Positions 8,117-17,447 of a DNA stretch of 33,670 nucleotides are shown here, piece after piece. Both the position numbers and the translations under genes were made by a program. How positions within the stretch are numbered: the stretch's first letter is position 1; each line of letters begins with the position of its first letter. Source of the stretch: a virus. The notes under the pieces are model-generated. The model searched no databases. It was not told where the DNA came from and worked only from the letters and a program-made list of their open reading frames with translations. The stretch covers positions 1-33,670 of the IMG/VR virus record IMGVR_UViG_3300032296_003280; one strand, 5' to 3'.

Positions 8117-8815
8117 ATGAATAGTTTCAATGAAAGAAAAGAATCCTTTATTAAGGAAAGTAAAAAACAGAGTAGAAAATTAATTGATATTAAAGATAAA
8201 GGTTATAATGCCTATAATCTTAAAGTTGCTATTAATAGAAAATATTATGCCTTAAAAAACAATATTAATTTATTAACTAATATGGCAACTATGGAATCTA
8301 AACAATTTGATTCTTTTATGATAGAGGATGATATATTATTTGAAAGAATAGTTTTTTTAGTTCCTAAAGATATAGAAATTACTTTAGAAAATATTAATGA
8401 TTATATTGAACTTAATTATGGGTATAATAGATATGTTGAAGCTGCTTTAAATATAGAAAAATATCCTATAAGAACAATTAGTGGAATTCATGATACTGTA
8501 GAAGATTTTACTATTACCTCTCCTTTAATTTTAAATAAAATTGAAAGTGGTAAAATGTCTGAAAAGTGGTTTAATTATGTAGTAGCTAATCAAGATTTAT
8601 ATCCTGAATTTTCAGGTAAAACTGGAAAGAGATTGATTTTGACTTTTACAGATTGGAAAGAAGATGAAAAAGCTATTAACAGTATGTTAAAAATGTTTGG
8701 ACAAGATCCTGATGAACTTTTAGAGAGAGCAAGAAGTTATAGTAGAGGAAATACAGTAGGTTGTAAAAGAGAGGATCTTTATAAAAAGTTTGAGAATTTA
8801 GCTCCTACTCTCTAA
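8117..8815 (+). CDS. Hypothetical protein (232 aa)
   Basis: ATG after AATAAGAGTT. Basic, helical N-terminus (Lys/Arg-rich, residues 5-30), an acidic middle and a predicted globular C-terminal half with YPIRTISGIHDTVEDF and KTGKRLILTFTDWKEDEKA. A monocistronic unit: own promoter in front, terminator behind. No domain recognised. The lysine-rich start could bind nucleic acid, but that is weak. Confidence 0.75.
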   Translation: MNSFNERKESFIKESKKQSRKLIDIKDKGYNAYNLKVAINRKYYALKNNINLLTNMATMESKQFDSFMIEDDILFERIVFLVPKDIEITLENINDYIELNYGYNRYVEAALNIEKYPIRTISGIHDTVEDFTITSPLILNKIESGKMSEKWFNYVVANQDLYPEFSGKTGKRLILTFTDWKEDEKAINSMLKMFGQDPDELLERARSYSRGNTVGCKREDLYKKFENLAPTL

Positions 8816-10544: not shown

Positions 10545-11345
10545 ATGTTAAACATTCAAAATTCCGAGTTCATTTCAAAAGAACAAATTCGTCAACAAGC
10601 TCCTTCAATTTTTACTACTACCAGTGCTCCTGGAACTAGTGAAAAGTATGCTCACATTCCTACCGATAAAATTATCGATGATATGGCTGCCCTTGGTTGG
10701 GGTGTTGTAGATGCTAAACAAGTTAAAGCTCGTAAAGGAGTAGGTTTCCAAAAACATTTGGTTGTATTCCGTAATAACGATATTCAAATCACTGCTGAAG
10801 ATGGTGATAATGTTTTCCCACAAATCCTATTGACTAACAGTCATGATGGTAAAAATGCCTTTACCTTTACTGCTGGTTTGTTCCGTATGATTTGTGAAAA
10901 TGGTTTAGTTGTATCTTCCCGTGAGTTTGAAAATATGAAGATTCGTCATATGGGTTATTCATTTGAAGAATTGCAAAATACCATTAAAACTATGGTTGAA
11001 AAATTGCCTTTGACTGTTGAATCACTTAATAAGTTCCGTCAAGTAGAATTAGGTCAAGAACAAGCTCTTGATTTTGCTAAAAAAGCTCTTGAAGTTCGTT
11101 TTGGTGATGATGTTGAAAACATTAAAGTTGATTTGAATGATTTGCTTACTGCTACTCGTCCAGCAGATAAAGGTTCTGATTTGTGGTCAATCTATAATGT
11201 AGTTCAGGAAAAATTGGTTCATGGTATGTTTAATTACACATATGGTTCCAAAGTTCGTAAAGCTCGTAAAATCAAAAACTTCCAACAAGATTTGGTTTTG
11301 AACGAACGTTTGTATGATTTGGCCCTTGAGTACGTTCCCGCATAA
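10545..11345 (+). CDS. DUF932-family protein, copy 2
   Basis: 266 residues. The core block AFTFTAGLFRMICENGLVVSS aligns with the CSNGL block of the copy at 7244, and both continue with a long helical region ending in a short Leu/Ala helix. The two are old paralogues: little identity outside the core. Single-gene transcript with its own promoter and AATAAAAGTT leader. Keeping two copies with separate promoters suggests different partners or timing. Role of the family unknown. Confidence 0.75.
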   Translation: MLNIQNSEFISKEQIRQQAPSIFTTTSAPGTSEKYAHIPTDKIIDDMAALGWGVVDAKQVKARKGVGFQKHLVVFRNNDIQITAEDGDNVFPQILLTNSHDGKNAFTFTAGLFRMICENGLVVSSREFENMKIRHMGYSFEELQNTIKTMVEKLPLTVESLNKFRQVELGQEQALDFAKKALEVRFGDDVENIKVDLNDLLTATRPADKGSDLWSIYNVVQEKLVHGMFNYTYGSKVRKARKIKNFQQDLVLNERLYDLALEYVPA

Positions 11346-11360
11346 GGGAATGTACTTAAG

Positions 11361-11392
11361 CTTGGTAATATAAAGATCTTTTTATATATTTA
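11361..11392 (+). promoter_or_regulatory. Class A promoter, CTTGG variant
   Basis: CTTGG at 11361-11365, 19 bases, TATATTTA at 11385-11392, ending 4 bases before the ATG at 11397, so nearly leaderless. It may also start the first tRNA. Confidence 0.65.
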
Positions 11393-11396
11393 TATC

Positions 11397-11588
11397 ATGA
11401 ACGAATTAGAAGAACAAGCAAAACAAGAAGCAATTTTTAATGCTAAATGTGATGAGATTTTATCTCAATCAGATAAAGCAGGAGTTCAGCTTGAAGTAAT
11501 TTGGTCAGCTTTTAAACACAAAGAACAATTCCGTAATGCTTCATTACTTGAATGCCTACAAGTAGGAGCAGATGAGTGGGATGTTTAA
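11397..11588 (+). CDS. Small acidic protein (63 aa) upstream of tRNA-Leu
   Basis: A polar, acidic, probably all-helical protein. The stop is 7 bases before tRNA-Leu, so gene and tRNA are likely on one transcript. It has one Cys in each half and no basic patch that would point to RNA binding. No family recognised. Confidence 0.65.
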   Translation: MNELEEQAKQEAIFNAKCDEILSQSDKAGVQLEVIWSAFKHKEQFRNASLLECLQVGADEWDV

Positions 11589-11595
11589 AGGATAT

Positions 11596-11681
11596 GCTGT
11601 TGTGGCGGAATAGGTAGACGCGTTGGACTTAAAATCCAATGGACCGAAAGGTTCGTGCCGGTTCGATTCCGGCCAGCAGTA
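11596..11681 (+). tRNA. tRNA-Leu(TAA)
   Basis: Class II tRNA: acceptor GCTGTTG/CAGCAGT, anticodon loop with TAA (GGACTTAAAATCC), variable arm, T-arm GCCGG-TTCGATT-CCGGC, A73. No encoded CCA. The first pair is G1-U72. Its D region is the closest canonical relative of the tRNA-like RNAs. Confidence 0.92.
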
Positions 11682-11715
11682 CAAAAAAAAGAAAAAAACA
11701 AATTTTTCACTTAAA

Positions 11716-11747
11716 TTTGGATTTTTCAAAAATTTTTGTTATATTTA
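11716..11747 (+). promoter_or_regulatory. Class A promoter of the large ncRNA block
   Basis: TTTGG at 11716-11720, 19 bases, TATATTTA at 11740-11747. There is no coding gene for nearly 2 kb downstream, so the product is RNA. Confidence 0.75.
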
Positions 11748-11754
11748 TGATATA

Positions 11755-12636
11755 ATAAAAAACGTTCTTAAATTTATTAGATATCCATTTCAACGCAAGT
11801 TGAATAAAAGATATTGGCAGCCTATGGTCGTTAAATAAACTGGGAAACCAGGATAAAGTGAATTGCTAGACTAAGCAGTTTGCGGCTTTGAAAAGAGCTC
11901 GAGTAGGCAAGCGAGATATCATTTGGTCCTAGTATCCGAGGGTAACACTTTAGGAGAATTGATTGAATGACTTGGCAATGTGGTTTGTCAGGTTGAGTTC
12001 GGAAGAGCAATAAGAATAACTCGTAGAAACAATGCAAAAAATACTTCCATCCAGTTGTATTATTGCGTTTTTCAATATCAGAGGATGCTTAAAGTCGGAA
12101 GACATGTTAATGTACAGGTGGTGCTGTTATTAACCTTGACCTTAGTCTACCAAGACATGAGTCATGAAGTAATCTCAAAGTATGGAGGTAGGGATATCTC
12201 AGAGAGTAGTTTAGTATTTTCTCGCTCAAAAGGTGGGGAAGCTAGGTTGGTAGGCCACTACTTTCACAATCCACAAGTCAAAACTTTAATAATTTGCCTT
12301 ATTGGTCGCAAAACCTATTAAATCAAAAATTAAAGCAAAAGTGCTTACCAGTTGCCGACGAAAGGTGCCTACACAGTATTGGGTTGTCCAATGCCATCAA
12401 TGATCGCAAGTCAAAGATGATTCGTTCGAAAAATTTGTAGCCTCGGCAGAGGTTTATCAGACCGCAAGTTTGAACAGATAGAGTAAAACGAGAGTAGTCG
12501 AATAAAAGCAACTTAAAGAGTGGTTTACTTAAATAACCGGCATTGTTAGGATACGAATCAAAAGTTCGTGGATAAGAAGGGAACACATAATCCAACAAAA
12601 GACCTAACACCAAAACGTATAGTCTCAGCGTTTTAT
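11755..12636 (+). ncRNA. Candidate giant structured RNA (~880 nt)
   Basis: No credible ORF, higher G+C than its surroundings, a dedicated promoter at the 5' end and a hairpin AAAACG/CGTTTT at 12612-12634 followed by ATTT at the 3' end. Many local stems with GNRA caps are visible: TTCAAC-GCAA-GTTGAA near 11790, CTGG-GAAA-CCAG near 11840, TGCT/AGCA near 11865, CTCG/CGAG near 11900. At the 3' end TGTTAGG (12543) pairs with CCTAACA (12603) around two inner stems. Known giant RNAs of phages that sit beside tRNA genes are GOLLD and ROOL. Size and context fit that class, but I cannot confirm family membership. Confidence 0.6.
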
Positions 12637-12638
12637 TT

Positions 12639-12711
12639 GCCCCCTTAGCTCAGTTGGTAGAGCTTCTGATTTGTAATCAGATGGTCGGCGGTTCGAGTCC
12701 GTCAGGTGGCT
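12639..12711 (+). tRNA. tRNA-Thr(TGT)
   Basis: Acceptor GCCCCCT/AGGTGGC with one mismatch, D-arm GCTC/GAGC, anticodon arm TCTGA-TTTGTAA-TCAGA, T-arm with TTCGAGT. Starts just after the terminal hairpin of the large RNA. Confidence 0.92.
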
Positions 12712-12713
12712 CT

Positions 12714-12782
12714 AAGGTATGTAAAACCAACAAGTGTATGTTAACAGCTTACTGGTTGACTTAAGCTAAATAGGAATACCTT
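12714..12782 (+). ncRNA. Structured spacer closed by a 7-bp stem
   Basis: AAGGTAT (12714-12720) pairs with ATACCTT (12776-12782), with AACCA/TGGTT or AGCTTA/TAAGCT inside. It is about tRNA length but has no T-arm. Probably folds in the precursor between two tRNAs. Confidence 0.35.
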
Positions 12783-12786
12783 TTAA

Positions 12787-12858
12787 GCAGGTATCGTATA
12801 ATGGTTATTACTCTAGTCTTCCAAACTGGAGACGCTAGTTCGATTCTAGCTACCTGCT
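12787..12858 (+). tRNA. tRNA-Gly(TCC)
   Basis: Acceptor GCAGGTA/TACCTGC, anticodon loop CTTCCAA, T-arm CTAG-TTCGATT-CTAG, discriminator T. Confidence 0.92.
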
Positions 12859-12876
12859 CAAAAAAATTAAATATAG

Positions 12877-12908
12877 TTTGGTATCTTAAGATTCCTTTCG
12901 TATATTTA
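12877..12908 (+). promoter_or_regulatory. Class A promoter of the attenuated tRNA operon
   Basis: TTTGG at 12877-12881, 19 bases, TATATTTA at 12901-12908. Transcription would begin a few bases later, leaving a short A-rich leader before the 31-codon ORF. Confidence 0.8.
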
Positions 12909-12930
12909 TAACAAATAAAAAATTTCAAAA

Positions 12931-13026
12931 ATGAAACATTGTATATCATATCAACTAAGTCCCCAGAAGTCGTTTTGGATGAATCCAGTGGCTGAGGACA
13001 TTAGATTGATTGGGCTTACGATGTAA
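12931..13026 (+). CDS. 31-codon leader peptide containing all 20 amino acids
   Basis: ATG at 12931 behind the A-rich leader AATTTCAAAA; TAA at 13024. All 20 amino acids occur, including single His3, Cys4, Tyr7, Phe15, Trp16, Asn18, Val20, Ala21, Glu22, Asp23, Arg25, Gly28 and Thr30. Amino acids used more than once take different codons: Leu CTA, TTG, CTT; Ser TCA, AGT, TCG; Ile ATA, ATT; Lys AAA, AAG; Gln CAA, CAG; Pro CCC, CCA. It therefore reads nearly every tRNA in the array; Arg uses AGA only. Codons 28-30 are one arm of the anti-terminator. Interpreted as the sensor of an attenuator, not a functional protein. Translation itself is unproven. Confidence 0.75.
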   Translation: MKHCISYQLSPQKSFWMNPVAEDIRLIGLTM

Positions 13027-13084
13027 CGTTTTTAAAACATATTAAAAACACTAGTAAGCCCGGTTCAAAAGATCGGGCTCTTTT
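12959..13084 (+). promoter_or_regulatory. Attenuator: competing anti-terminator and terminator
   Basis: Three stems are visible. (1) GTCCCCAG 12959-12966 with CTGAGGAC 12992-12999, one C-A mismatch. (2) GGGCTTAC 13012-13019 with GTAAGCCC 13054-13061, enclosing an 8-bp hairpin GTTTTTAA/TTAAAAAC (13028-13049). (3) AGCCCG 13057-13062 with CGGGCT 13074-13079 followed by CTTTT. Stems 2 and 3 share 13057-13061 and cannot coexist. The ribosome finishing the leader ORF at 13026 would cover 13012-13019 and favour stem 3. This is classical attenuation geometry. Confidence 0.75.
13057..13084 (+). terminator. Conditional intrinsic terminator
   Basis: AGCCCG-11 nt-CGGGCT then CTTTT, just before the boxA and tRNA-Phe. 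It blocks the tRNA operon when the upstream anti-terminator cannot form. Confidence 0.7.
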
Positions 13085-13096
13085 AGTTCTTTGACA
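13085..13096 (+). promoter_or_regulatory. boxA-like antitermination site 1
   Basis: AGTTCTTTGACA, close to the NusB/S10 boxA consensus TGCTCTTTAACA and like the sequence ahead of Bacteroidota 16S rRNA genes. The motif plus ATATGAGAA is repeated at 14570. Lies between the terminator and tRNA-Phe. Confidence 0.7.
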
Positions 13097-13109
13097 TATG
13101 AGAAAAAAT

Positions 13110-13182
13110 GCGGCAGTAGCAAAGATGGTCAATGCACTGGACTGAAAATCCAGCCATGCAGGTTCGAGTCCTGCCTTCCGCA
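13110..13182 (+). tRNA. tRNA-Phe(GAA)
   Basis: Acceptor GCGGCAG/CTTCCGC (one mismatch), anticodon arm TGGA-CTGAAAA-TCCA, T-arm GCAGG-TTCGAGT-CCTGC, A73. First tRNA after the attenuator. Confidence 0.92.
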
Positions 13183-13188
13183 CAATAT

Positions 13189-13264
13189 AGCGTAGTAGAG
13201 GAGTCAGGTTTATCTCATCTGCTTTGGGAGCAGAGGTACGCCGGTTCGAATCCGGCCTACGCTA
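13189..13264 (+). tRNA. tRNA-Pro(TGG)
   Basis: Perfect acceptor AGCGTAG/CTACGCT, anticodon arm TCTGC-TTTGGGA-GCAGA, T-arm GCCGG-TTCGAAT-CCGGC, A73. Confidence 0.93.
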
Positions 13265-13270
13265 CAAAAT

Positions 13271-13344
13271 GACCTTATAGCTCAATTGGTTAGAGCACTA
13301 CACTTTTAATGTAGGGGTTGAAAGTTCGAGTCTTTCTGGGGTCA
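13271..13344 (+). tRNA. tRNA-Lys(TTT)
   Basis: Acceptor GACCTTA/TGGGGTC, D-arm GCTC/GAGC, anticodon arm CTACA-CTTTTAA-TGTAG, T-arm GAAAG-TTCGAGT-CTTTC, A73. Confidence 0.93.
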
Positions 13345-13350
13345 CAATTT

Positions 13351-13426
13351 CTTTCCTTTGCTTAGTTGGTTTTAAAGCGTCTCTTTTACACGGAGAAGAT
13401 CGTTGGTTCGAATCCAGCAGGAAAGA
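13351..13426 (+). tRNA. tRNA-Val(TAC)
   Basis: Acceptor CTTTCCT/AGGAAAG, D-arm GCTT/AAGC, anticodon loop TTTACAC in stem TCTCT/GGAGA, T-arm GTTGG-TTCGAAT-CCAGC, A73. Confidence 0.9.
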
Positions 13427-13432
13427 CAAAAT

Positions 13433-13514
13433 GCCTGTATCGCATAGCGGCAATTGCAGCTGACTGTAAATCAGCTCTCTTTTGAGTTCGGAGGTTCGAG
13501 TCCTTCTGCAGGCA
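13433..13514 (+). tRNA. tRNA-Tyr(GTA)
   Basis: Class II: acceptor GCCTGTA/TGCAGGC, anticodon arm GCTGA-CTGTAAA-TCAGC, variable arm CTCTTTTGAG, T-arm GGAGG-TTCGAGT-CCTTC, A73. Confidence 0.92.
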
Positions 13515-13520
13515 CTAAAT

Positions 13521-13594
13521 AGAAATATAGCTCAATTGGTTAGAGCACTTGTCTGATACACAAGAGGTTACAAGTTCGATTCTTGTTATTTCTA
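13521..13594 (+). tRNA. tRNA-Ile(GAT)
   Basis: Acceptor AGAAATA/TATTTCT, anticodon arm CTTGT-CTGATAC-ACAAG, T-arm ACAAG-TTCGATT-CTTGT, A73. Confidence 0.93.
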
Positions 13595-13600
13595 CTAAAC

Positions 13601-13673
13601 GGTGTATGTAGCTCAAAGGAAGAGCGTTTGCTTGTGGCGCAAAAGGTTGGGATTTCGAAATTCCTCATATACC
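13601..13673 (+). tRNA. tRNA-His(GTG)
   Basis: Acceptor GTGTATG/CATATAC with an encoded G(-1) at 13601 opposite C73, the His identity pair. Anticodon arm TTTGC-TTGTGGC-GCAAA. The D-loop is short. Confidence 0.9.
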
Positions 13674-13680
13674 CTAAAAA

Positions 13681-13764
13681 GGAAAGTGACCCTTGACGGT
13701 GATAGGGCTTGCCTGCTAAGCAATGTGTACCTTCGGGTATTTGGTTCGACTCCAACTCTTTCCG
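13681..13764 (+). tRNA. tRNA-Ser(GCT)
   Basis: Class II: acceptor GGAAAG/CTTTCC, anticodon arm TTGC-CTGCTAA-GCAA, variable arm GTACC-TTCG-GGTAT, T-loop TTCGACT, G73. Confidence 0.9.
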
Positions 13765-13776
13765 CTATGTAAAAAC

Positions 13777-13785
13777 TATTTATAA
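13777..13785 (+). promoter_or_regulatory. Class B (late-type) box TATTTATAA
   Basis: TATTTATAA eight bases before the ATG at 13793, with no TTTGG at the -33 position. Same box precedes genes at 21617, 24108 and 33282. Confidence 0.45.
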
Positions 13786-13792
13786 TAAAACT

Positions 13793-14245
13793 ATGGAATT
13801 CAGAACATTAACAAACCGGAAAAAAATCAATTTGGTTGACTACGTTAGAGCGTATTTAAACGACAATCCTCATGTTGAGGTGTTGGTTGGGTGTGACTCG
13901 CAAGGTTATTGGGATAAAACGATATATGCAACTGTAGTAGCACTTTATAAACCGGGTAATGGTGCACATGTTTTATATTATAGAGAAACACTACCTGTTG
14001 AAAGAGTTCGTCAAGTACGTTTAATGACTGAGGTTTGGAAATCAATTGAAGTAGCTGAAGTACTTAAAAATGCAGGTTTACCTCAAGTTAAATATATTGA
14101 CATAGACATTAATCCTGACAAAAGATATAAATCAAACGAGGTTTTAAGAGCAGCGGTTGGTTTAGTTGAAGGGATGGGTTATCAAGTTAGATATAAAACA
14201 CTAGGTGCAATGGCAACATTTGCAGCTGATACGTTAGTAAAATAA
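13793..14245 (+). CDS. YkuK/DUF458-type RNase H-fold protein
   Basis: 150 residues from ATG 13793; an upstream in-frame extension would run into tRNA-Ser and is rejected. V-G-C-D35-S-Q starts the RNase H-like first strand, with E80 on the following helix and D103-I-D105 in the next strand (YIDIDINPD), giving the acidic residues of a two-metal nuclease. The pattern matches the YkuK (DUF458) family, predicted RNase H-like nucleases. It is the only protein gene between the tRNA-Phe and tRNA-Arg(TCT) genes, so a role in tRNA or RNA maturation or turnover is plausible but inferred. Confidence 0.7.
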   Translation: MEFRTLTNRKKINLVDYVRAYLNDNPHVEVLVGCDSQGYWDKTIYATVVALYKPGNGAHVLYYRETLPVERVRQVRLMTEVWKSIEVAEVLKNAGLPQVKYIDIDINPDKRYKSNEVLRAAVGLVEGMGYQVRYKTLGAMATFAADTLVK

Positions 14246-14251
14246 CTAACT

Positions 14252-14325
14252 GGTTCCTTAGCTTAATGGATTAGAGCACTTCGCTACGGACGAAGGGGTT
14301 GGGAGTTCGAGTCTCTCAGGAACTA
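14252..14325 (+). tRNA. tRNA-Arg(ACG)
   Basis: Acceptor GGTTCCT/AGGAACT with G1-U72, anticodon arm CTTCG-CTACGGA-CGAAG, T-arm GGGAG-TTCGAGT-CTCTC, A73. ACG would need host TadA to make inosine at position 34. The only array tRNA whose codons are absent from the leader ORF. Confidence 0.92.
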
Positions 14326-14332
14326 CTAATAA

Positions 14333-14403
14333 GGTCAGTTGTCCGATTGGTAAGGTGGGTGTCTGCAAAATTCCCTATATAGGTTCGAATCCTATACTGA
14401 CCT
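14333..14403 (+). tRNA. tRNA-Cys(GCA)
   Basis: Perfect acceptor GGTCAGT/ACTGACC, anticodon loop CTGCAAA in a weak stem (one mismatch), T-arm ATAGG-TTCGAAT-CCTAT, U73 as expected for Cys. Confidence 0.88.
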
Positions 14404-14409
14404 CAATAC

Positions 14410-14480
14410 GTGTCTGTGGTGTAATGGTAACATAGTGGTCTCCAAAACCTCTGTTGGGAGTTCGAGTCTCTCCAGGCATG
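14410..14480 (+). tRNA. tRNA-Trp(CCA)
   Basis: Acceptor GTGTCTG/CAGGCAT with G1-U72, anticodon loop CTCCAAA, T-arm GGGAG-TTCGAGT-CTCTC, G73 (Trp identity). Confidence 0.9.
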
Positions 14481-14511
14481 CAAAAAGAAAGTTAAAGATT
14501 TTTATAAAAGA

Positions 14512-14543
14512 TTTGGCTTTTTAAAGAATGTTTCGTACATTCA
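14512..14543 (+). promoter_or_regulatory. Class A promoter, second tRNA sub-operon
   Basis: TTTGG at 14512-14516, 19 bases, TACATTCA at 14536-14543. A boxA follows 26 bases later; no leader ORF or terminator is seen here. Confidence 0.85.
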
Positions 14544-14569
14544 TTGGGTTGTTGAGATAATAACAAAAT

Positions 14570-14581
14570 TGCTCTTTGACA
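14570..14581 (+). promoter_or_regulatory. boxA-like antitermination site 2
   Basis: TGCTCTTTGACA matches the boxA consensus TGCTCTTTAACA at 11 of 12 positions and is followed by TATGAGAA as at site 1. Lies between a promoter and tRNA-Leu(TAG). Confidence 0.75.
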
Positions 14582-14594
14582 TATGAGAACAAAT

Positions 14595-14676
14595 ACCGAG
14601 GTGGTGAAATTGGTAGACACGCCGGTCTTAGAAACCGGTGCTTAATCGCTTGCGAGTTCGAGTCTCGCCTTCGGTA
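14595..14676 (+). tRNA. tRNA-Leu(TAG)
   Basis: Class II: acceptor ACCGAGG/CTTCGGT, anticodon arm CCGGT-CTTAGAA-ACCGG, T-arm GCGAG-TTCGAGT-CTCGC, A73. Confidence 0.93.
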
Positions 14677-14681
14677 CAAAT

Positions 14682-14781
14682 AGTCAGGTGGCGGAAATGG
14701 TAGACGCACCCAAAAGGATAGTGATGAAGGTAGGAGTACCCCATGTAAAACTATATACAGGTTCAAGTCCTGTCCTGACTA
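14682..14781 (+). ncRNA. tRNA-like RNA 3 (100 nt)
   Basis: Acceptor AGTCAGG/CCTGACT, Leu-type D region TGGCGGAAATGGTAGACGCA, T-arm ACAGG-TTCAAGT-CCTGT (T-loop differs from the other copies). The interior has GGTA-GGAG-TACC and ATAGT/ACTAT stems but no 5-bp/7-nt anticodon arm. Confidence 0.7.
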
Positions 14782-14869
14782 CAAGGAGTGTCAACCTCAA
14801 GTGCTGGGTAGTTAAAAACTATCAGATGAGCCCATCAAAGTTGGTGACAGCTTGGAAAGACAAGTACAC
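14782..14869 (+). other. Structured tRNA spacer
   Basis: Contains GTCAAC pairing with the GTTGGTGAC region and a CAAG/CTTG outer pair, with GGTAGTT-AAA-AACTATC inside. No ORF and no tRNA features. Confidence 0.3.
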
Positions 14870-14941
14870 GTCTTGGTAGCTCAGTGGTAGAGCAAGCGGC
14901 TGTTAACCGCTAGGTCGTAGGTTCGAAACCTTCCCAGGACG
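14870..14941 (+). tRNA. tRNA-Asn(GTT)
   Basis: Acceptor GTCTTGG/CCAGGAC, D-arm GCTC/GAGC, anticodon arm AGCGG-CTGTTAA-CCGCT, G73 (Asn identity). Confidence 0.93.
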
Positions 14942-14947
14942 CTAAAT

Positions 14948-15019
14948 GGCCCTTTCGTCTATCGGTTAGGACATCAGATTTTCAATCTGTAAAGACGGGT
15001 TCGATTCCCGTAGGGGCTA
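14948..15019 (+). tRNA. tRNA-Glu(TTC)
   Basis: Acceptor GGCCCTT/AGGGGCT with G1-U72, anticodon arm TCAGA-TTTTCAA-TCTGT, T-arm ACGGG-TTCGATT-CCCGT, A73. Confidence 0.92.
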
Positions 15020-15025
15020 CAAATT

Positions 15026-15162
15026 TCAGGAGTAATTAACCTGAAACTGACAGGTTCGAAACTGTCGATTGGCTATGGTGTAATGGAGCACAGCAGAACG
15101 GAGTACGAGATTCAATCTCAGAAAGGGGACGCAGGATTAAGGTTCGAATCCTTATTAGTCAG
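15026..15162 (+). ncRNA. tRNA-like RNA 4, Gln-type, with upstream extra T-arm
   Basis: The core 15070-15162 has acceptor TGGCTAT/TTAGTCA (one mismatch), a GGTGTAATGG D region like tRNA-Trp/Gln, and T-arm TAAGG-TTCGAAT-CCTTA with G73. Where the anticodon arm should be there is only GAGAT-TCA-ATCTC and loose sequence. Just upstream, 15026-15066 has hairpin TCAGG/CCTGA with loop AGTAATTAA, matching a hairpin inside tRNA-like RNA 1, and a stray T-arm-like GACAG-GTTCGAA-ACTGTC. Not a normal tRNA; could be a rearranged relic or a functional decoy. Confidence 0.5.
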
Positions 15163-15172
15163 CAAATTAAAT

Positions 15173-15246
15173 TGCGGGGAAGTTGAGCTGGTGCACACAG
15201 GGGTCTCATAAGCCTCTCTAGGTGGATTCGATTTCCACTCCCGCAA
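15173..15246 (+). tRNA. tRNA-Met(CAT), possibly initiator
   Basis: Acceptor TGCGGGG/TCCCGCA, anticodon loop CTCATAA in stem GGGGT/GCCTC, T-arm GTGGA-TTCGATT-TCCAC, A73. The G-rich anticodon stem and weak T1-A72 pair hint at an initiator, but the D-arm is irregular, so elongator is not excluded. Confidence 0.82.
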
Positions 15247-15250
15247 CAAA

Positions 15251-15324
15251 GTGTTGTTCCCTTGAGAAAGGAATGTTAAGACAAAGAGTGATTAATTGTC
15301 TTTAATAACGAACCACTACAACAC
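15251..15324 (+). ncRNA. Structured spacer, tRNA-sized, 7-bp closing stem
   Basis: GTGTTGT (15251-15257) pairs with ACAACAC (15318-15324). Inside are TTCC/GGAA and a long TTAAGACAA/TTGTCTTTAA stem. 74 nt with a 7-bp end stem like a tRNA, but no T-loop. Confidence 0.45.
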
Positions 15325-15346
15325 AAAGGACTTCTCATCCTTAAAC

Positions 15347-15417
15347 TACCCTCTCGTCTAACGGCAGGACAAGTGGTTTTGGTCCACTTAATCGAGGTTC
15401 GAATCCTTGGGGGGTAA
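15347..15417 (+). tRNA. tRNA-Gln(TTG)
   Basis: Acceptor TACCCTC/GGGGGTA, D-arm GTC/GAC, anticodon arm AGTGG-TTTTGGT-CCACT, T-loop TTCGAAT, A73. Confidence 0.9.
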
Positions 15418-15418
15418 C

Positions 15419-15524
15419 TAGGTAGAAGTAAGTAACACCTGTTGCAGGCAACATAAAGTAAGAACCACAACTTGACTGGTCGTTACTTCTTATAATAGAT
15501 AATGTGGATATTGTAAGCTACCTA
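15419..15524 (+). ncRNA. Structured spacer, 7-bp closing stem
   Basis: TAGGTAG (15419-15425) pairs with CTACCTA (15518-15524). Inside are an AGAAGTAA/GTTACTTCT stem and hairpin TGTTG-CAGG-CAACA. No tRNA arms, no ORF. Confidence 0.4.
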
Positions 15525-15527
15525 TTT

Positions 15528-15600
15528 GGGGTTGTAGCTCAACTGGCTGAGCGCTTCCTTTGCAAGGAAGAGGTCATGGGTTCAAATCCCTTCAACTCCA
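15528..15600 (+). tRNA. tRNA-Ala(TGC)
   Basis: Acceptor GGGGTTG/CAACTCC with the G3-U70 Ala identity pair, anticodon arm CTTCC-TTTGCAA-GGAAG, T-arm with TTCAAAT, A73. Confidence 0.93.
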
Positions 15601-15826
15601 CAATGAGTAAGAGATACTCAGCAGTCTTTAATCCAAGACTCATTTAACAATGGATTCGTTCAATCCGGACAGCGAGAATGCCGGATCTTGGGAATAAAGG
15701 ATAAAGACACAAATCCTCCCAGTAGTGTTGATTTATATTTTTATGTGGTAAGACACTAATGTGTTTGTTTTTAAGAAAACTAAACCGTTAAAATCTACTC
15801 ACTTTGAATCTCAGAGTGGGAAAAAC
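15601..15826 (+). other. 226-nt structured gene-free spacer
   Basis: A series of hairpins: GAGT/ACTC, AGTCTT-TAATCC-AAGACT, GGATT-CGTTC-AATCC, TCCGG/CCGGA, TGGGA/TCCCA, ACAC-TAAT-GTGT and CTCACTTT/AGAGTGGG, leading into tRNA-like RNA 5. No ORF. Density of stems suggests a structured RNA rather than filler. Confidence 0.4.
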
Positions 15827-15952
15827 AGTCAGGTGGCGAAATTGGATAGACGCTAAGTGAGTTCAAATGTGTTACTGTTTAATTCAGTGTACAGTTCGCA
15901 GGTAGGATAGTCTGCCACAATGAACATACAGGTTCGAATCCTGTCCTGACTA
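15827..15952 (+). ncRNA. tRNA-like RNA 5 (126 nt)
   Basis: Acceptor AGTCAGG/CCTGACT, D region TGGCGAAATTGGATAGACGCT, T-arm ACAGG-TTCGAAT-CCTGT, A73. Inside, GTTCA/TGAAC encloses a TACTG-TTTAATT-CAGTG arm and a GCAG/CTGC hairpin. The 7-nt loop would present TAA (Leu) with U33, so this copy keeps a trace of an anticodon arm displaced by insertions on both sides. Confidence 0.7.
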
Positions 15953-16170
15953 CACGGTCCGAAACACGACAACGGATAGTGTGCCCAACACGATGAGAAA
16001 CGGAGTGATGACCGTATGGGACTGATGATAGGACAAGGTTCTATTCGGTTTGACTAACCGCGGGGAATATCAAAGAGATGTAAAGAACAACGTACTCTCA
16101 AAGTCTATTTCTAACCCGGTAACGGGGACAGCCACAACACCTGTAAGTTGAATAAATTAGGGTGTTATTT
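15953..16170 (+). other. 218-nt structured gene-free spacer
   Basis: ACGGTC (15954-15959) pairs with GACCGT (16010-16015), enclosing GTGT-GCCCA-ACAC. Then CGGTT-TGACT-AACCG, a GNRA hairpin CCCG-GTAA-CGGG, and AACACC/GGTGTT just before tRNA-like RNA 6. No ORF. Confidence 0.4.
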
Positions 16171-16260
16171 AGTCAGGTGGCAATTGGTGTCACAGCTGCT
16201 TCGGGGGCTGTACAACGTTCCCTGTAATGGGGAATACAGGTTCGAATCCTGTCCTGACTA
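16171..16260 (+). ncRNA. tRNA-like RNA 6 (90 nt, most tRNA-shaped)
   Basis: Acceptor AGTCAGG/CCTGACT and T-arm ACAGG-TTCGAAT-CCTGT, A73. The arm at the anticodon position is ACAGC...GCTGT with a loop TGCTTCGGGG too long for decoding. A second arm TTCCC-TGTAATG-GGGAA takes the variable-arm place. Class II-like fold without a usable anticodon. Confidence 0.7.
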
Positions 16261-16265
16261 CAAAA

Positions 16266-16337
16266 GGTCTATTAGTGTAGTGGTTACCACGTCTCACTGT
16301 CTATGAGATAACCTCGGTTCGAATCCGGGATAGACCG
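16266..16337 (+). tRNA. tRNA-Asp(GTC)
   Basis: Acceptor GGTCTAT/ATAGACC, anticodon arm TCTCA-CTGTCTA-TGAGA, T-loop TTCGAAT, G73 (Asp identity). Confidence 0.92.
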
Positions 16338-16345
16338 CAAAATAC

Positions 16346-16430
16346 GGAAAGTTGGCAGAGTGGTTTAATGCGGCAGTCTTGAAAACTGTTGACTGTAACA
16401 GGTCCGGGAGTTCGAATCTCTCACTTTCCG
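16346..16430 (+). tRNA. tRNA-Ser(TGA)
   Basis: Class II: acceptor GGAAAGT/ACTTTCC, anticodon arm CAGT-CTTGAAA-ACTG, T-arm GGGAG-TTCGAAT-CTCTC, G73. Confidence 0.92.
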
Positions 16431-16540
16431 CACCTTAAAACCGATTCGGGTTCGTGAACAAGGGAGGCCTGCGACTTGAAATACAGACAAATCACGTTAA
16501 ATCTCCTCACACTAGGTGGCATCGGTGACCTAGTACTTAT
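16431..16540 (+). other. Structured tRNA spacer
   Basis: Hairpin ACTAGGT (16511-16517)/ACCTAGT (16528-16534), plus CGTG/CACG and an ACCGAT/ATCGGT pairing that competes with it. No ORF. Confidence 0.35.
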
Positions 16541-16614
16541 GTTCTCATAGCTCAGCTGGATAGAGCAACTGCCTTCTAAGCAGTAGGTCAATGGTTCGAA
16601 TCCATTTGGGAATA
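16541..16614 (+). tRNA. tRNA-Arg(TCT)
   Basis: Acceptor GTTCTCA/TGGGAAT with G1-U72, D-arm GCTC/GAGC, anticodon arm CTGC-CTTCTAA-GCAG, T-arm AATGG-TTCGAAT-CCATT, A73. Confidence 0.92.
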
Positions 16615-16622
16615 CAAATAGG

Positions 16623-16634
16623 AGTTCTTTGACA
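16623..16634 (+). promoter_or_regulatory. boxA-like antitermination site 3
   Basis: AGTTCTTTGACA followed by TATTAAAA, identical in its core to site 1. It lies inside the tRNA operon just before a protein gene and the last tRNA. Confidence 0.65.
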
Positions 16635-16657
16635 TATTAAAAAAGAAAGGAATAAAA

Positions 16658-16954
16658 ATGGAAATAACATCATTTATTTTAGGTATGCTCTCAGTGGTAG
16701 CTGTGATTGTAATTGCAGTTATTGTTAAGGGTATGGTTAAGATTGTAAAACTAGAAAAAGAGTTGAAAAATACTCAAGAAAGCATTGAATGGAGAGATAG
16801 AAATAATTCAGATGCTAATCGTGAAATATACGATAGATTATCAATGATGGATGAACATGCTTATCGTCAATTAGAAGAAATAAAAAGAGATCTTATCTCT
16901 TATGTAGATTCTCGTATAGACAAGCTTCAGTCTAAAAAGGAGGCAACCAAATAA
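16658..16954 (+). CDS. Membrane-anchored coiled-coil protein (98 aa)
   Basis: One N-terminal membrane segment (about residues 4-27, Val/Ile-rich) followed by a charged coiled coil to the end (LEKELKNTQESIEWRDRNN onward). AGAAAGGAATAAAA before the ATG is the closest thing to a Shine-Dalgarno site in this half of the window. Sits between boxA 3 and the last tRNA. The topology resembles an i-spanin or a small membrane scaffold, but the lysis genes are downstream and separate. Function unknown. Confidence 0.7.
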   Translation: MEITSFILGMLSVVAVIVIAVIVKGMVKIVKLEKELKNTQESIEWRDRNNSDANREIYDRLSMMDEHAYRQLEEIKRDLISYVDSRIDKLQSKKEATK

Positions 16955-16989
16955 TTTAAGTTAAACCCGTCAAAGAATTCCTATTTACT

Positions 16990-17063
16990 GGATCCTTAGC
17001 TCAATTGGTTAGAGCAACTGACTCATAATCAGTAGGTCATAGGTTCGATTCCTATAGGATCCA
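16990..17063 (+). tRNA. tRNA with CAT anticodon (Ile2 or elongator Met)
   Basis: Perfect acceptor GGATCCT/AGGATCC, D-arm GCTC/GAGC, anticodon arm CTGA-CTCATAA-TCAG, T-arm ATAGG-TTCGATT-CCTAT, A73. With a second CAT tRNA at 15173, this may be the tRNA-Ile whose C34 is changed to lysidine by host TilS to read ATA; the leader ORF contains ATA. Confidence 0.88.
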
Positions 17064-17091
17064 CGCCACTGAAGACGAAGCGTTTATTCGC

Positions 17092-17128
17092 TATGAACCC
17101 ATCAATTAATTTTGGTGGGTTCTTTTTT
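17092..17128 (+). terminator. Strong intrinsic terminator ending the tRNA array
   Basis: GAACCCA pairs with TGGGTTC (7 bp, plus inner TCA/TGG-type pairs) and is followed by seven T. Closes the RNA region. Confidence 0.85.
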
Positions 17129-17192
17129 TGCTCTTTTGTATATGTATCATTGATCAAGGTTGTTATTAATGGTTTTTTTAATTTTAAAAACT

Positions 17193-17447
17193 ATGAAACT
17201 ACCAATTAGCTTTGAACAATTTTCAAAAGACCCAGTTAAAGGTCTTTTATTTCTAGTATTACTTGCCATTGGTTATCTTTATGTAGATAACAAAATGAAT
17301 TATCAAGGTCAAGTTGAAAACTGTGGAAAAACAGTAGAAAAATTACAAACCAAATTAGACGGATTAGAAGAAAAACTTCGAAAAAGTGATAGTACGCTTG
17401 CTCGTGCTGCCGCTAAATTAGAGGTATTAAATGGAGTTAGCAAATGA
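17193..17447 (+). CDS. Probable inner-membrane spanin (i-spanin-like)
   Basis: 84 residues from ATG 17193, preceded by an A/T-rich leader; upstream TTG and ATG extensions are less likely. One membrane segment (about 17-33, GLLFLVLLAIGYLYV) then a periplasmic coiled coil (VEKLQTKLDGLEEKLRK). The stop overlaps the start of a lipoprotein gene by 4 bases. Inner-membrane coiled-coil protein plus outer-membrane lipoprotein next to an endolysin is the Rz/Rz1 arrangement. Assigned by architecture only. Confidence 0.6.
   Translation: MKLPISFEQFSKDPVKGLLFLVLLAIGYLYVDNKMNYQGQVENCGKTVEKLQTKLDGLEEKLRKSDSTLARAAAKLEVLNGVSK

What the first reader, a model, noticed from the sequence alone, without database searches (positions are those of the whole stretch)
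12931..13026. Leader codons appear chosen to read different isoacceptors of the array
Leu is read by CTA, CTT (TAG tRNA) and TTG (TAA tRNA); Ser by TCA/TCG (TGA tRNA) and AGT (GCT tRNA); Ile by ATT (GAT tRNA) and the rare ATA (a CAT tRNA with lysidine). Both members of each two-tRNA family in the array are sampled except Arg. This goes beyond needing one of each amino acid.
Basis: seen in the sequence. Interest (0 to 1): 0.8.

Follow-up and report, generated by a model that had tools for sequence, protein, structure and literature searches.

The report
Codon-matched attenuators guard phage tRNA arrays
A bacterial virus seems to test whether the cell is short of exactly those transfer RNAs that it can supply, by making ribosomes read a tiny gene built from the matching codons, and to switch on its own tRNA genes only when they stall.

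Summary
The 31-codon ORF at 12931-13026 is best read as the leader of a ribosome-mediated transcription attenuator in front of a phage tRNA array. It encodes all 20 amino acids, and its last codons (GGGCTTAC) pair with the 5' arm of a terminator just upstream of the array. The codon choice is not private to this phage. A search without any amino-acid criterion found 120 leader/array records (41 clusters). The leaders' amino acids follow their own downstream tRNA set (z 10.7; reading frame only; 27 of 27 within-contig pairs), and only upstream of the antiterminator strand, as attenuation requires. In the window itself details are weaker: tRNA-Leu(TAA) lies upstream of the leader, ATA is not rare, and sampling both boxes is no more than chance. 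Cultured Cellulophaga phages phi4:1 and phi17:2 carry three such leaders each, splitting the array into codon-matched operons. Attenuation is a known mechanism; its use to sense and replace a virus's own tRNA set appears new. No experiment was done.

The parts
12901..12912 (+). promoter-like -7 element TATATTTATAAC (Bacteroidota type, recalled)
   Evidence: sequence; promoter-like motif upstream of 35 of 54 leaders, shuffled mean 15.1
12931..13026 (+). leader ORF, 31 codons, all 20 amino acids; codons 2-23 sensing, 24-31 not (model)
12936..13024 (+). predicted hairpin of the leader RNA with itself (possible protector); seen in the fold of the window only
13012..13019 (+). antiterminator strand GGGCTTAC inside the last leader codons
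13054..13061 (+). GTAAGCCC, antiterminator partner overlapping the 5' arm of the terminator
13057..13084 (+). terminator hairpin (9 bp stem) and short T tract
13086..13104 (+). boxA-like sequence GTTCTTTGACATATGAGAA (name recalled)
   Evidence: sequence; also used as search seed, so not an independent feature
13110..17064 (+). controlled tRNA array for 18 amino acids (all but Gly and Thr)
11596..12859 (+). tRNAs upstream of the attenuator: Leu-TAA 11596, Thr-TGT 12639, Gly-TCC 12787 (not controlled by it)

Best explanation
The leader belongs to a multivalent ribosome-mediated attenuator that senses shortage of the very tRNAs encoded behind it. Transcription starts shortly before the leader (inferred). 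If all charged tRNAs are plentiful, the ribosome runs to the stop codon and covers GGGCTTAC; the terminator folds and the array stays off. If any tRNA needed by leader codons 2 to about 23 is scarce, the ribosome stalls, GGGCTTAC is left free, pairs with GTAAGCCC, blocks the terminator, and the array is transcribed. Codons upstream of the antiterminator strand are therefore selected to match the tRNAs of the downstream array, strongly at amino-acid level and detectably at isoacceptor-box level; codons inside that strand are set by base pairing. Shown here: anatomy, complementarity, frame-specific and position-specific codon-array match over many unlike leaders. Inferred: stalling, the direction of regulation, and the trigger (host tRNA loss, for example by tRNA-cleaving defences or host shut-off).
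For: (1) Amino-acid match over 41 clusters: leader residues covered by own array 0.677 vs permuted 0.521, sd 0.015, none of 20,000 reaches it. (2) Only the leader's frame: z 12.7; other frames -1.8 and 0.6; antisense -0.3, -1.3, 0.0 (55 leaders). (3) 27 of 27 within-contig leader pairs favour the own array, 739 vs 255 array-specific residues; pairs share families, so they are not all independent. (4) Position: match 0.80 (expected 0.37) at 5-9 codons before the antiterminator strand, 0.74 at 10-16, 0.40 (expected 0.38) in or after it. (5) Antiterminator complementarity p<0.05 against shuffles in 37 of 55, median strand start 14 nt before the stop; the set had been chosen for a pairing score of at least 14. 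(6) Stall model: window codons 1-23 give antitermination 0.56-0.93, codons 24-32 do not (0.08-0.21); the same switch on average over 55 leaders. (7) 465 of 501 array amino-acid kinds occur in the sensing part of the own leader, permuted 323.9, max 361. (8) Cultured phages phi4:1 and phi17:2: three leaders each; for phi4:1 the own assignment is the best of 6 (0.629 vs at most 0.382) and no array amino acid is absent from its leader. (9) Leader lost together with most of the array in close relatives L007 and L008.
Against: No expression data. With full-length RNA at equilibrium the terminator still dominates on average (P 0.69-0.78 for stalls 14-31 codons before the stop), so the switch must act during transcription. 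The window's terminator has a broken T tract (CTCTTTTA). Arg in the window occurs only at codon 25, outside the modelled sensing range, although two Arg tRNAs are downstream; Ile is sensed there only through ATA, not through the ATT read by the GAT tRNA. The first codons match little more than expected (0.45 vs 0.37). Arrays without leaders exist.
Confidence: 0.88

Rival explanations
1. The leader is a general attenuator for any translation stress; having many amino acids is enough and the choice of codons is not tied to the array.
For: The window leader holds all 20 amino acids, including Gly and Thr, whose tRNAs are not in the controlled array.
Against: Small arrays have restricted leaders that match them; leader-array match z 10.7 and 27 of 27 within-contig pairs.
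Confidence: 0.05
2. In the window the isoacceptor pattern is a by-product: the codons are fixed by amino-acid need and by RNA pairing, without selection at isoacceptor level.
For: With three Leu and three Ser codons, using both boxes is expected by chance; TTG, CTT and both ATT codons lie in the unsensed part; rare codons are enriched most in the antiterminator part, 21% vs 6% expected, but also in the sensing part, 14% vs 5%.
Against: Over relatives the sensing codons match the single isoacceptor box present, 74 of 105, p 1e-4; phi4:1 uses CGT before Arg-ACG and AGA before Arg-TCT.
Confidence: 0.45
3. The ORF encodes a small protein with its own function, and terminator and tRNA genes are merely neighbours.
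For: Some orthologues are conserved at protein level (L004, L006, L010, L069).
Against: Unlike leaders at the same place differ wholly in sequence but agree in array match and in pairing of their 3' end with the terminator.
Confidence: 0.02
4. The leader works in the opposite sense or by another route, for example as a codon-matched ORF whose translation itself lets polymerase read through (coupling, boxA-dependent antitermination).
For: A boxA-like sequence follows the window terminator.
Against: Match is lost exactly inside the antiterminator strand, which a coupling model does not predict; no boxA-like sequence was found in the phi4:1 and phi17:2 arrays.
Confidence: 0.05

Closest known systems
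Multivalent ribosome-mediated attenuators of amino-acid operons (trp, his, thr, ilvGMEDA leaders of enterobacteria; recalled)
   Same: Short leader ORF rich in control codons, intrinsic terminator, mutually exclusive antiterminator, control codons placed so that a stalled ribosome frees the antiterminator.
   Different: Here the controlled genes are tRNA genes, not biosynthetic genes; up to about 17 or more amino acids are sensed at once; the antiterminator strand lies inside or next to the leader's own last codons; found in phages; several leaders may split one array.
T-box riboswitches (recalled)
   Same: Sense tRNA charging and control transcription termination.
   Different: A T-box needs no ORF and no ribosome; no T-box match up to E 1 in window 11300-17300.
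Phage tRNAs that replace host tRNAs cut by defence systems (eLife e85183, PMC10264068; Nat Commun 15:9586, PMC11555353; passages seen)
   Same: Phage tRNAs restore translation when host tRNAs are lost.
   Different: These papers deal with supply, not with sensing: 'attenuat' and 'leader' do not occur in the text of the first, 'attenuat' and 'leader peptide' not in the second.
GOLLD RNA (RF02032) beside tRNA islands (PMC12286853, passages seen)
   Same: Present here at 12202-12631, next to the array.
   Different: A separate structured RNA upstream; neither the leader nor the terminator.

Membership tests
Ribosome-mediated transcription attenuator | short leader ORF between promoter and intrinsic terminator | tested here: met
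   ORF 12931-13026, terminator 13057-13084; promoter by motif only
Ribosome-mediated transcription attenuator | antiterminator mutually exclusive with the terminator | tested here: met
   the two share 13057-13061; both pairings kept in all cells of 6 homologues (few variable pairs, covariation not above shuffles); RNA from 13000 folds into the antiterminator, from 13027 into the terminator
Ribosome-mediated transcription attenuator | leader codons correspond to the product of the controlled operon | tested here: met
   z 10.7 over 41 clusters; frame and position controls
Ribosome-mediated transcription attenuator | ribosome at the stop codon masks the antiterminator strand | tested here: met
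   by folding model only: mean P(antiterminator) 0.13 with the stop codon in the A site, 55 leaders
Ribosome-mediated transcription attenuator | derepression on shortage of the cognate charged tRNA | not testable with these tools
   needs a reporter or infection experiment
Known Rfam leader families and T-box | covariance-model match over the leader region | tested here: not met
   no match over the leader up to E 1 in a scan of 11300-17300

The most novel reading that the evidence does not exclude
Phages of Bacteroidota carry a demand-driven tRNA replacement system: arrays are divided into operons, each behind its own attenuator whose leader is a codon-by-codon test of the tRNAs in that operon, isoacceptors included, so that the virus detects which host tRNAs a defence nuclease or host shut-off has removed and restores that set.
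Probability: 0.6. Interest if true: 0.95.

Novelty: new variant of a known kind. Interest (0 to 1): 0.9.

Why it matters
[quoted passage not shown] If these leaders work as inferred, they show what the virus itself measures, namely shortage of the tRNAs it supplies, and so speak for replacement on demand rather than constant codon compensation. The leaders are also a readable record of which tRNA losses each phage expects. Cultured phages with three such modules (Cellulophaga phi4:1 and phi17:2) make the idea directly testable. It would extend attenuation from amino-acid operons to tRNA genes and to many amino acids sensed at once. None of seven literature queries aimed at such a system gave one (an open-access PMC library only, so subscription journals and most preprints were not searched).

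Tried and rejected
Tried without result: BLAST of the leader region against phage records listed tRNA genes or unannotated places, none covering most of the query. tblastn of two leader peptides in phage records gave no true match. Near-identical DNA was sought for three contigs: one gave nothing, two gave only short tRNA-gene matches, one of which led to the Cellulophaga phages. Flavobacterium phage immuto 30-80 kb shows no tRNA. The genome contigs pattern scan gave 9 hits, none of them among the leader records.

Rejected: that every leader must hold 20 amino acids (small arrays have restricted leaders); that ATA is rare; that the leader controls the Thr, Gly and Leu(TAA) tRNAs (they lie upstream).

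Rows dropped: one search dropped 10 of 109 rows (weak pairing or wrong spacing), among them real-looking leaders in L189, L237, L256 and L501. L036, L038, L039, L040 (a conserved 47-aa ORF, taken as false positives) are in the 41 clusters but not in the 55-leader set. The position test left out arrays of more than 14 amino-acid kinds and one L454 case. 13 of 55 arrays run to the end of the sequence held. In one search the loci L011, L060, L090, L093, L099 and L154 show no leader only because they had been removed as duplicates or replaced by longer regions.

Bias: most contigs came from patterns of a T run plus a boxA-like sequence, so prevalence is unknown. Arrays without such leaders: crAss-like cr116_1, mycobacteriophage Myrna, Erwinia phage IT22, and window relatives L012, L014, L076, L152.

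Full report
WHAT IS THERE. The ORF at 12931-13026 has 31 codons and encodes all 20 amino acids; among all stop-free 31-residue stretches in six frames of the window only this one, and the same stretch shifted by one codon, does so. It starts about 20 nt after a Bacteroidota-type -7 element (type recalled) and is followed by a terminator hairpin (13057-13084), a boxA-like sequence (13086-13104) and a tRNA array for 18 amino acids. The last leader codons, GGGCTTAC (13012-13019), are complementary to GTAAGCCC (13054-13061), the 5' side of the terminator. RNA 13000-13085 folds into this antiterminator (-23.7 kcal/mol); RNA 13027-13085 folds into the terminator (-17.8). In six homologues both pairings are kept in every cell. 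One antiterminator pair changes between C-G and U-A, with one U-G, but with so few variable pairs the covariation is not above shuffles. That change turns the Thr codon ACG into Met ATG, in keeping with this Thr codon being set by pairing and not by tRNA-Thr, whose gene lies upstream of the attenuator.

STALL MODEL. Folding the RNA downstream of a ribosome at each codon (footprint 12 nt past the A-site codon) gives antitermination for window codons 1-23 (P 0.56-0.93 when transcribed to the terminator loop) and not for codons 24-32 (0.08-0.21; full-length terminator 0.92-0.95). Arg, Gly and Thr are the only amino acids found solely in the unsensed part. Gly and Thr are also the only two with no tRNA in the downstream array; their tRNA genes lie upstream (12639, 12787). 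Arg is the exception, with two downstream tRNAs and one unsensed codon.

RELATIVES. Loci were gathered by two protein searches and four DNA patterns in viral contigs, with 32 extended regions. Leaders were then called by structure alone: a terminator upstream of tRNAs, an ATG ORF ending about 10-60 nt before it, and pairing of the ORF's 3' end with the 5' arm; no amino-acid criterion. This gave 120 records, 41 clusters at 50% identity, or 55 leaders below 60% identity once four likely false positives were removed. Examples: MSNIINIQPQPQHHPQGC before Pro His Gln Gln; on the same contig MKTLLDILLVSLMAVALLWDDDAEEVRKVGFIEGDRG before Asp Asp Glu Val Leu Leu Ala Trp, and MRSFRKYYYGKKSYKKYLIGIGDSMF before Tyr Lys; MKTILNILPSILRPSIRRS before Ser Arg Pro Ile Met Leu; MTTIINIFEFNVIEDRSLGLGYLCV before Asp Glu Ile Phe; MKKGFNILPLHSSLSSSTRRPITPVENLGN before Ser Thr Ser Leu Arg His Pro Ser Met Leu Arg. 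The 46 loci that hold the 55 leaders fall into 24 groups by shared proteins (partial contigs, so a rough measure of diversity).

STATISTICS. Leader residues covered by the own array: 0.677 against 0.521 for permuted arrays (sd 0.015, none of 20,000 as high). Arrays of at most 12 kinds (24 clusters): 0.506 against 0.327. The signal is confined to the leader's frame: z 12.7, against -1.8 and 0.6 in the other frames and -0.3, -1.3, 0.0 antisense. On contigs with more than one leader every pair favours its own array, 27 of 27, though several pairs belong to the same families. Of 501 array amino-acid kinds, 465 occur in the sensing part of the own leader, against 323.9 when permuted (max 361 of 5,000).

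POSITION. The match is 0.74 and 0.80 at 10-16 and 5-9 codons before the antiterminator strand (expected 0.37), 0.55 (0.39) at 1-4 codons before it, and 0.40 (0.38) in or after it; the first codons reach 0.45 (0.37) and codons more than 16 before it 0.58 (0.37). This is what a stalled ribosome needs, and none of the other readings I considered predicts it.

THE ISOACCEPTOR CLAIM. For Leu, Ser and Arg, where an array holds one of the two codon boxes, 74 of 105 sensing codons lie in the matching box (permuted 52.6, sd 5.4, p 1e-4); 40 of 43 cases use it and 19 of 43 also use the other. In or after the antiterminator strand the figure is 10 of 26. Counting all codons without regard to position, the match is 79 of 124, p 0.0066. 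Arrays with both boxes do not sample both more than chance. In the window, Leu fails (the TAA tRNA is upstream), Ser holds, Ile is undecided, and Arg is unsensed. Leaders use codons rare in their own contigs more than expected, 14% against 5% in the sensing part and 21% against 6% in the antiterminator part, so part of the unusual codon choice probably comes from structure.

NATURAL LOSS. L007 and L008, 97% identical to the window in the DUF932 protein, have 9 tRNAs in the array where full-size relatives have 24-26. In L007 the stretch that should hold the leader and the first tRNA block holds other genes; L008 was seen only as a tRNA list. Loss of the controlled tRNAs goes with loss of the leader.

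CULTURED PHAGES. Cellulophaga phages phi4:1 (NC_021788) and phi17:2 (NC_021798) have three modules each. Leader A, MKIQRLHLQELEQPIISGGTGV, precedes Pro Glu Gln His Leu Leu Arg(ACG). Leader B lies within annotated gp075 (gp077 of phi17:2); read from a GTG it continues QLTKTGITVIDKTKGARAYLGDTVIG and precedes Ala Lys Ile Gly Met Asp Thr Val Arg(TCT) Met. Leader C, MKTNYCTYNNSNWSFSYDTGSVCTLGSDGLIG, precedes Tyr Ser Ser Asn Trp Phe and a last tRNA, annotated as a pseudogene, that I read by eye as Cys. Arg codons are CGT in A and AGA in B, matching the isoacceptor in each array. In phi4:1 the own assignment scores 0.629, the best other of six 0.382. Leader B was recognised by reading, not by the pipeline. 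A and B share one promoter-like sequence. No boxA-like sequence was found in these arrays, so boxA is not essential. Modelled stalls in A and C give antitermination for the first 13 and 14 codons respectively; in C the model is less clean, with some later codons also above 0.5.

LIMITS. No expression data exist here. The search seed biases the sample, so prevalence is unknown; arrays in cr116_1, Myrna, Erwinia IT22 and several window relatives show no leader. Equilibrium folds of full-length RNA favour the terminator on average, so the switch must act during transcription. The set was chosen for a pairing score of at least 14, so the pairing test is not independent of selection; before that cut 99 of 109 rows passed it together with the spacing rule. 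The trigger, host tRNA loss, is inferred from work showing or proposing that phage tRNAs rescue phages from tRNA-cleaving defences (PMC11555353, PMC10264068; passages read).

KNOWN OR NEW. A 2019 survey of viral tRNA clusters names Cellulophaga phages but its text holds neither 'leader' nor 'attenuat' nor 'promoter' (PMC6409571, passages seen). Seven literature queries gave no such system. The mechanism is that of enterobacterial leader attenuators (recalled); the target, the breadth of sensing and the splitting of arrays into matched operons are what appears new.

VERDICT. A codon-matched attenuator class in phages, supported by anatomy and statistics and unproved by experiment.

Noticed in passing
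window 12202-12631: GOLLD RNA (RF02032, 278 bits) directly upstream of tRNA-Thr/Gly and the leader.
   Followed up: partly
window 14683-14782, 15833-15955, 16171-16261: Three tRNA-like elements share the same acceptor and T-arm ends (GTCAGGTGG...CCTGACTA) with unusual middles; only the last is called by ARAGORN at its default, as Pro(CGG).
   Followed up: no
window 15070-15163: Odd tRNA-like element called Ser(CGA) only at a lowered threshold.
   Followed up: no
window 13793-14242: RNase H-like protein gene (PF04308) inside the tRNA array; a similar reading frame is still there in L007 after loss of the leader and neighbouring tRNAs.
   Followed up: partly
L007 4000-5330: Other genes stand where the window has the leader and first tRNA block, so this site looks like an exchange spot.
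   Followed up: no
L559 (NC_021788) 8638-8757: Annotated hypothetical protein gp075 of Cellulophaga phage phi4:1 is in its 3' part a leader peptide of the kind described.
   Followed up: yes
L559 7654-7713 and 8614-8673: The same promoter-like sequence precedes two of the three phi4:1 leaders, as if the promoter-leader-terminator module had been copied.
   Followed up: no
L520, L547: Array tRNAs called with anticodon CTA or TTA at the lowered ARAGORN threshold: possible suppressor tRNAs or false calls.
   Followed up: no
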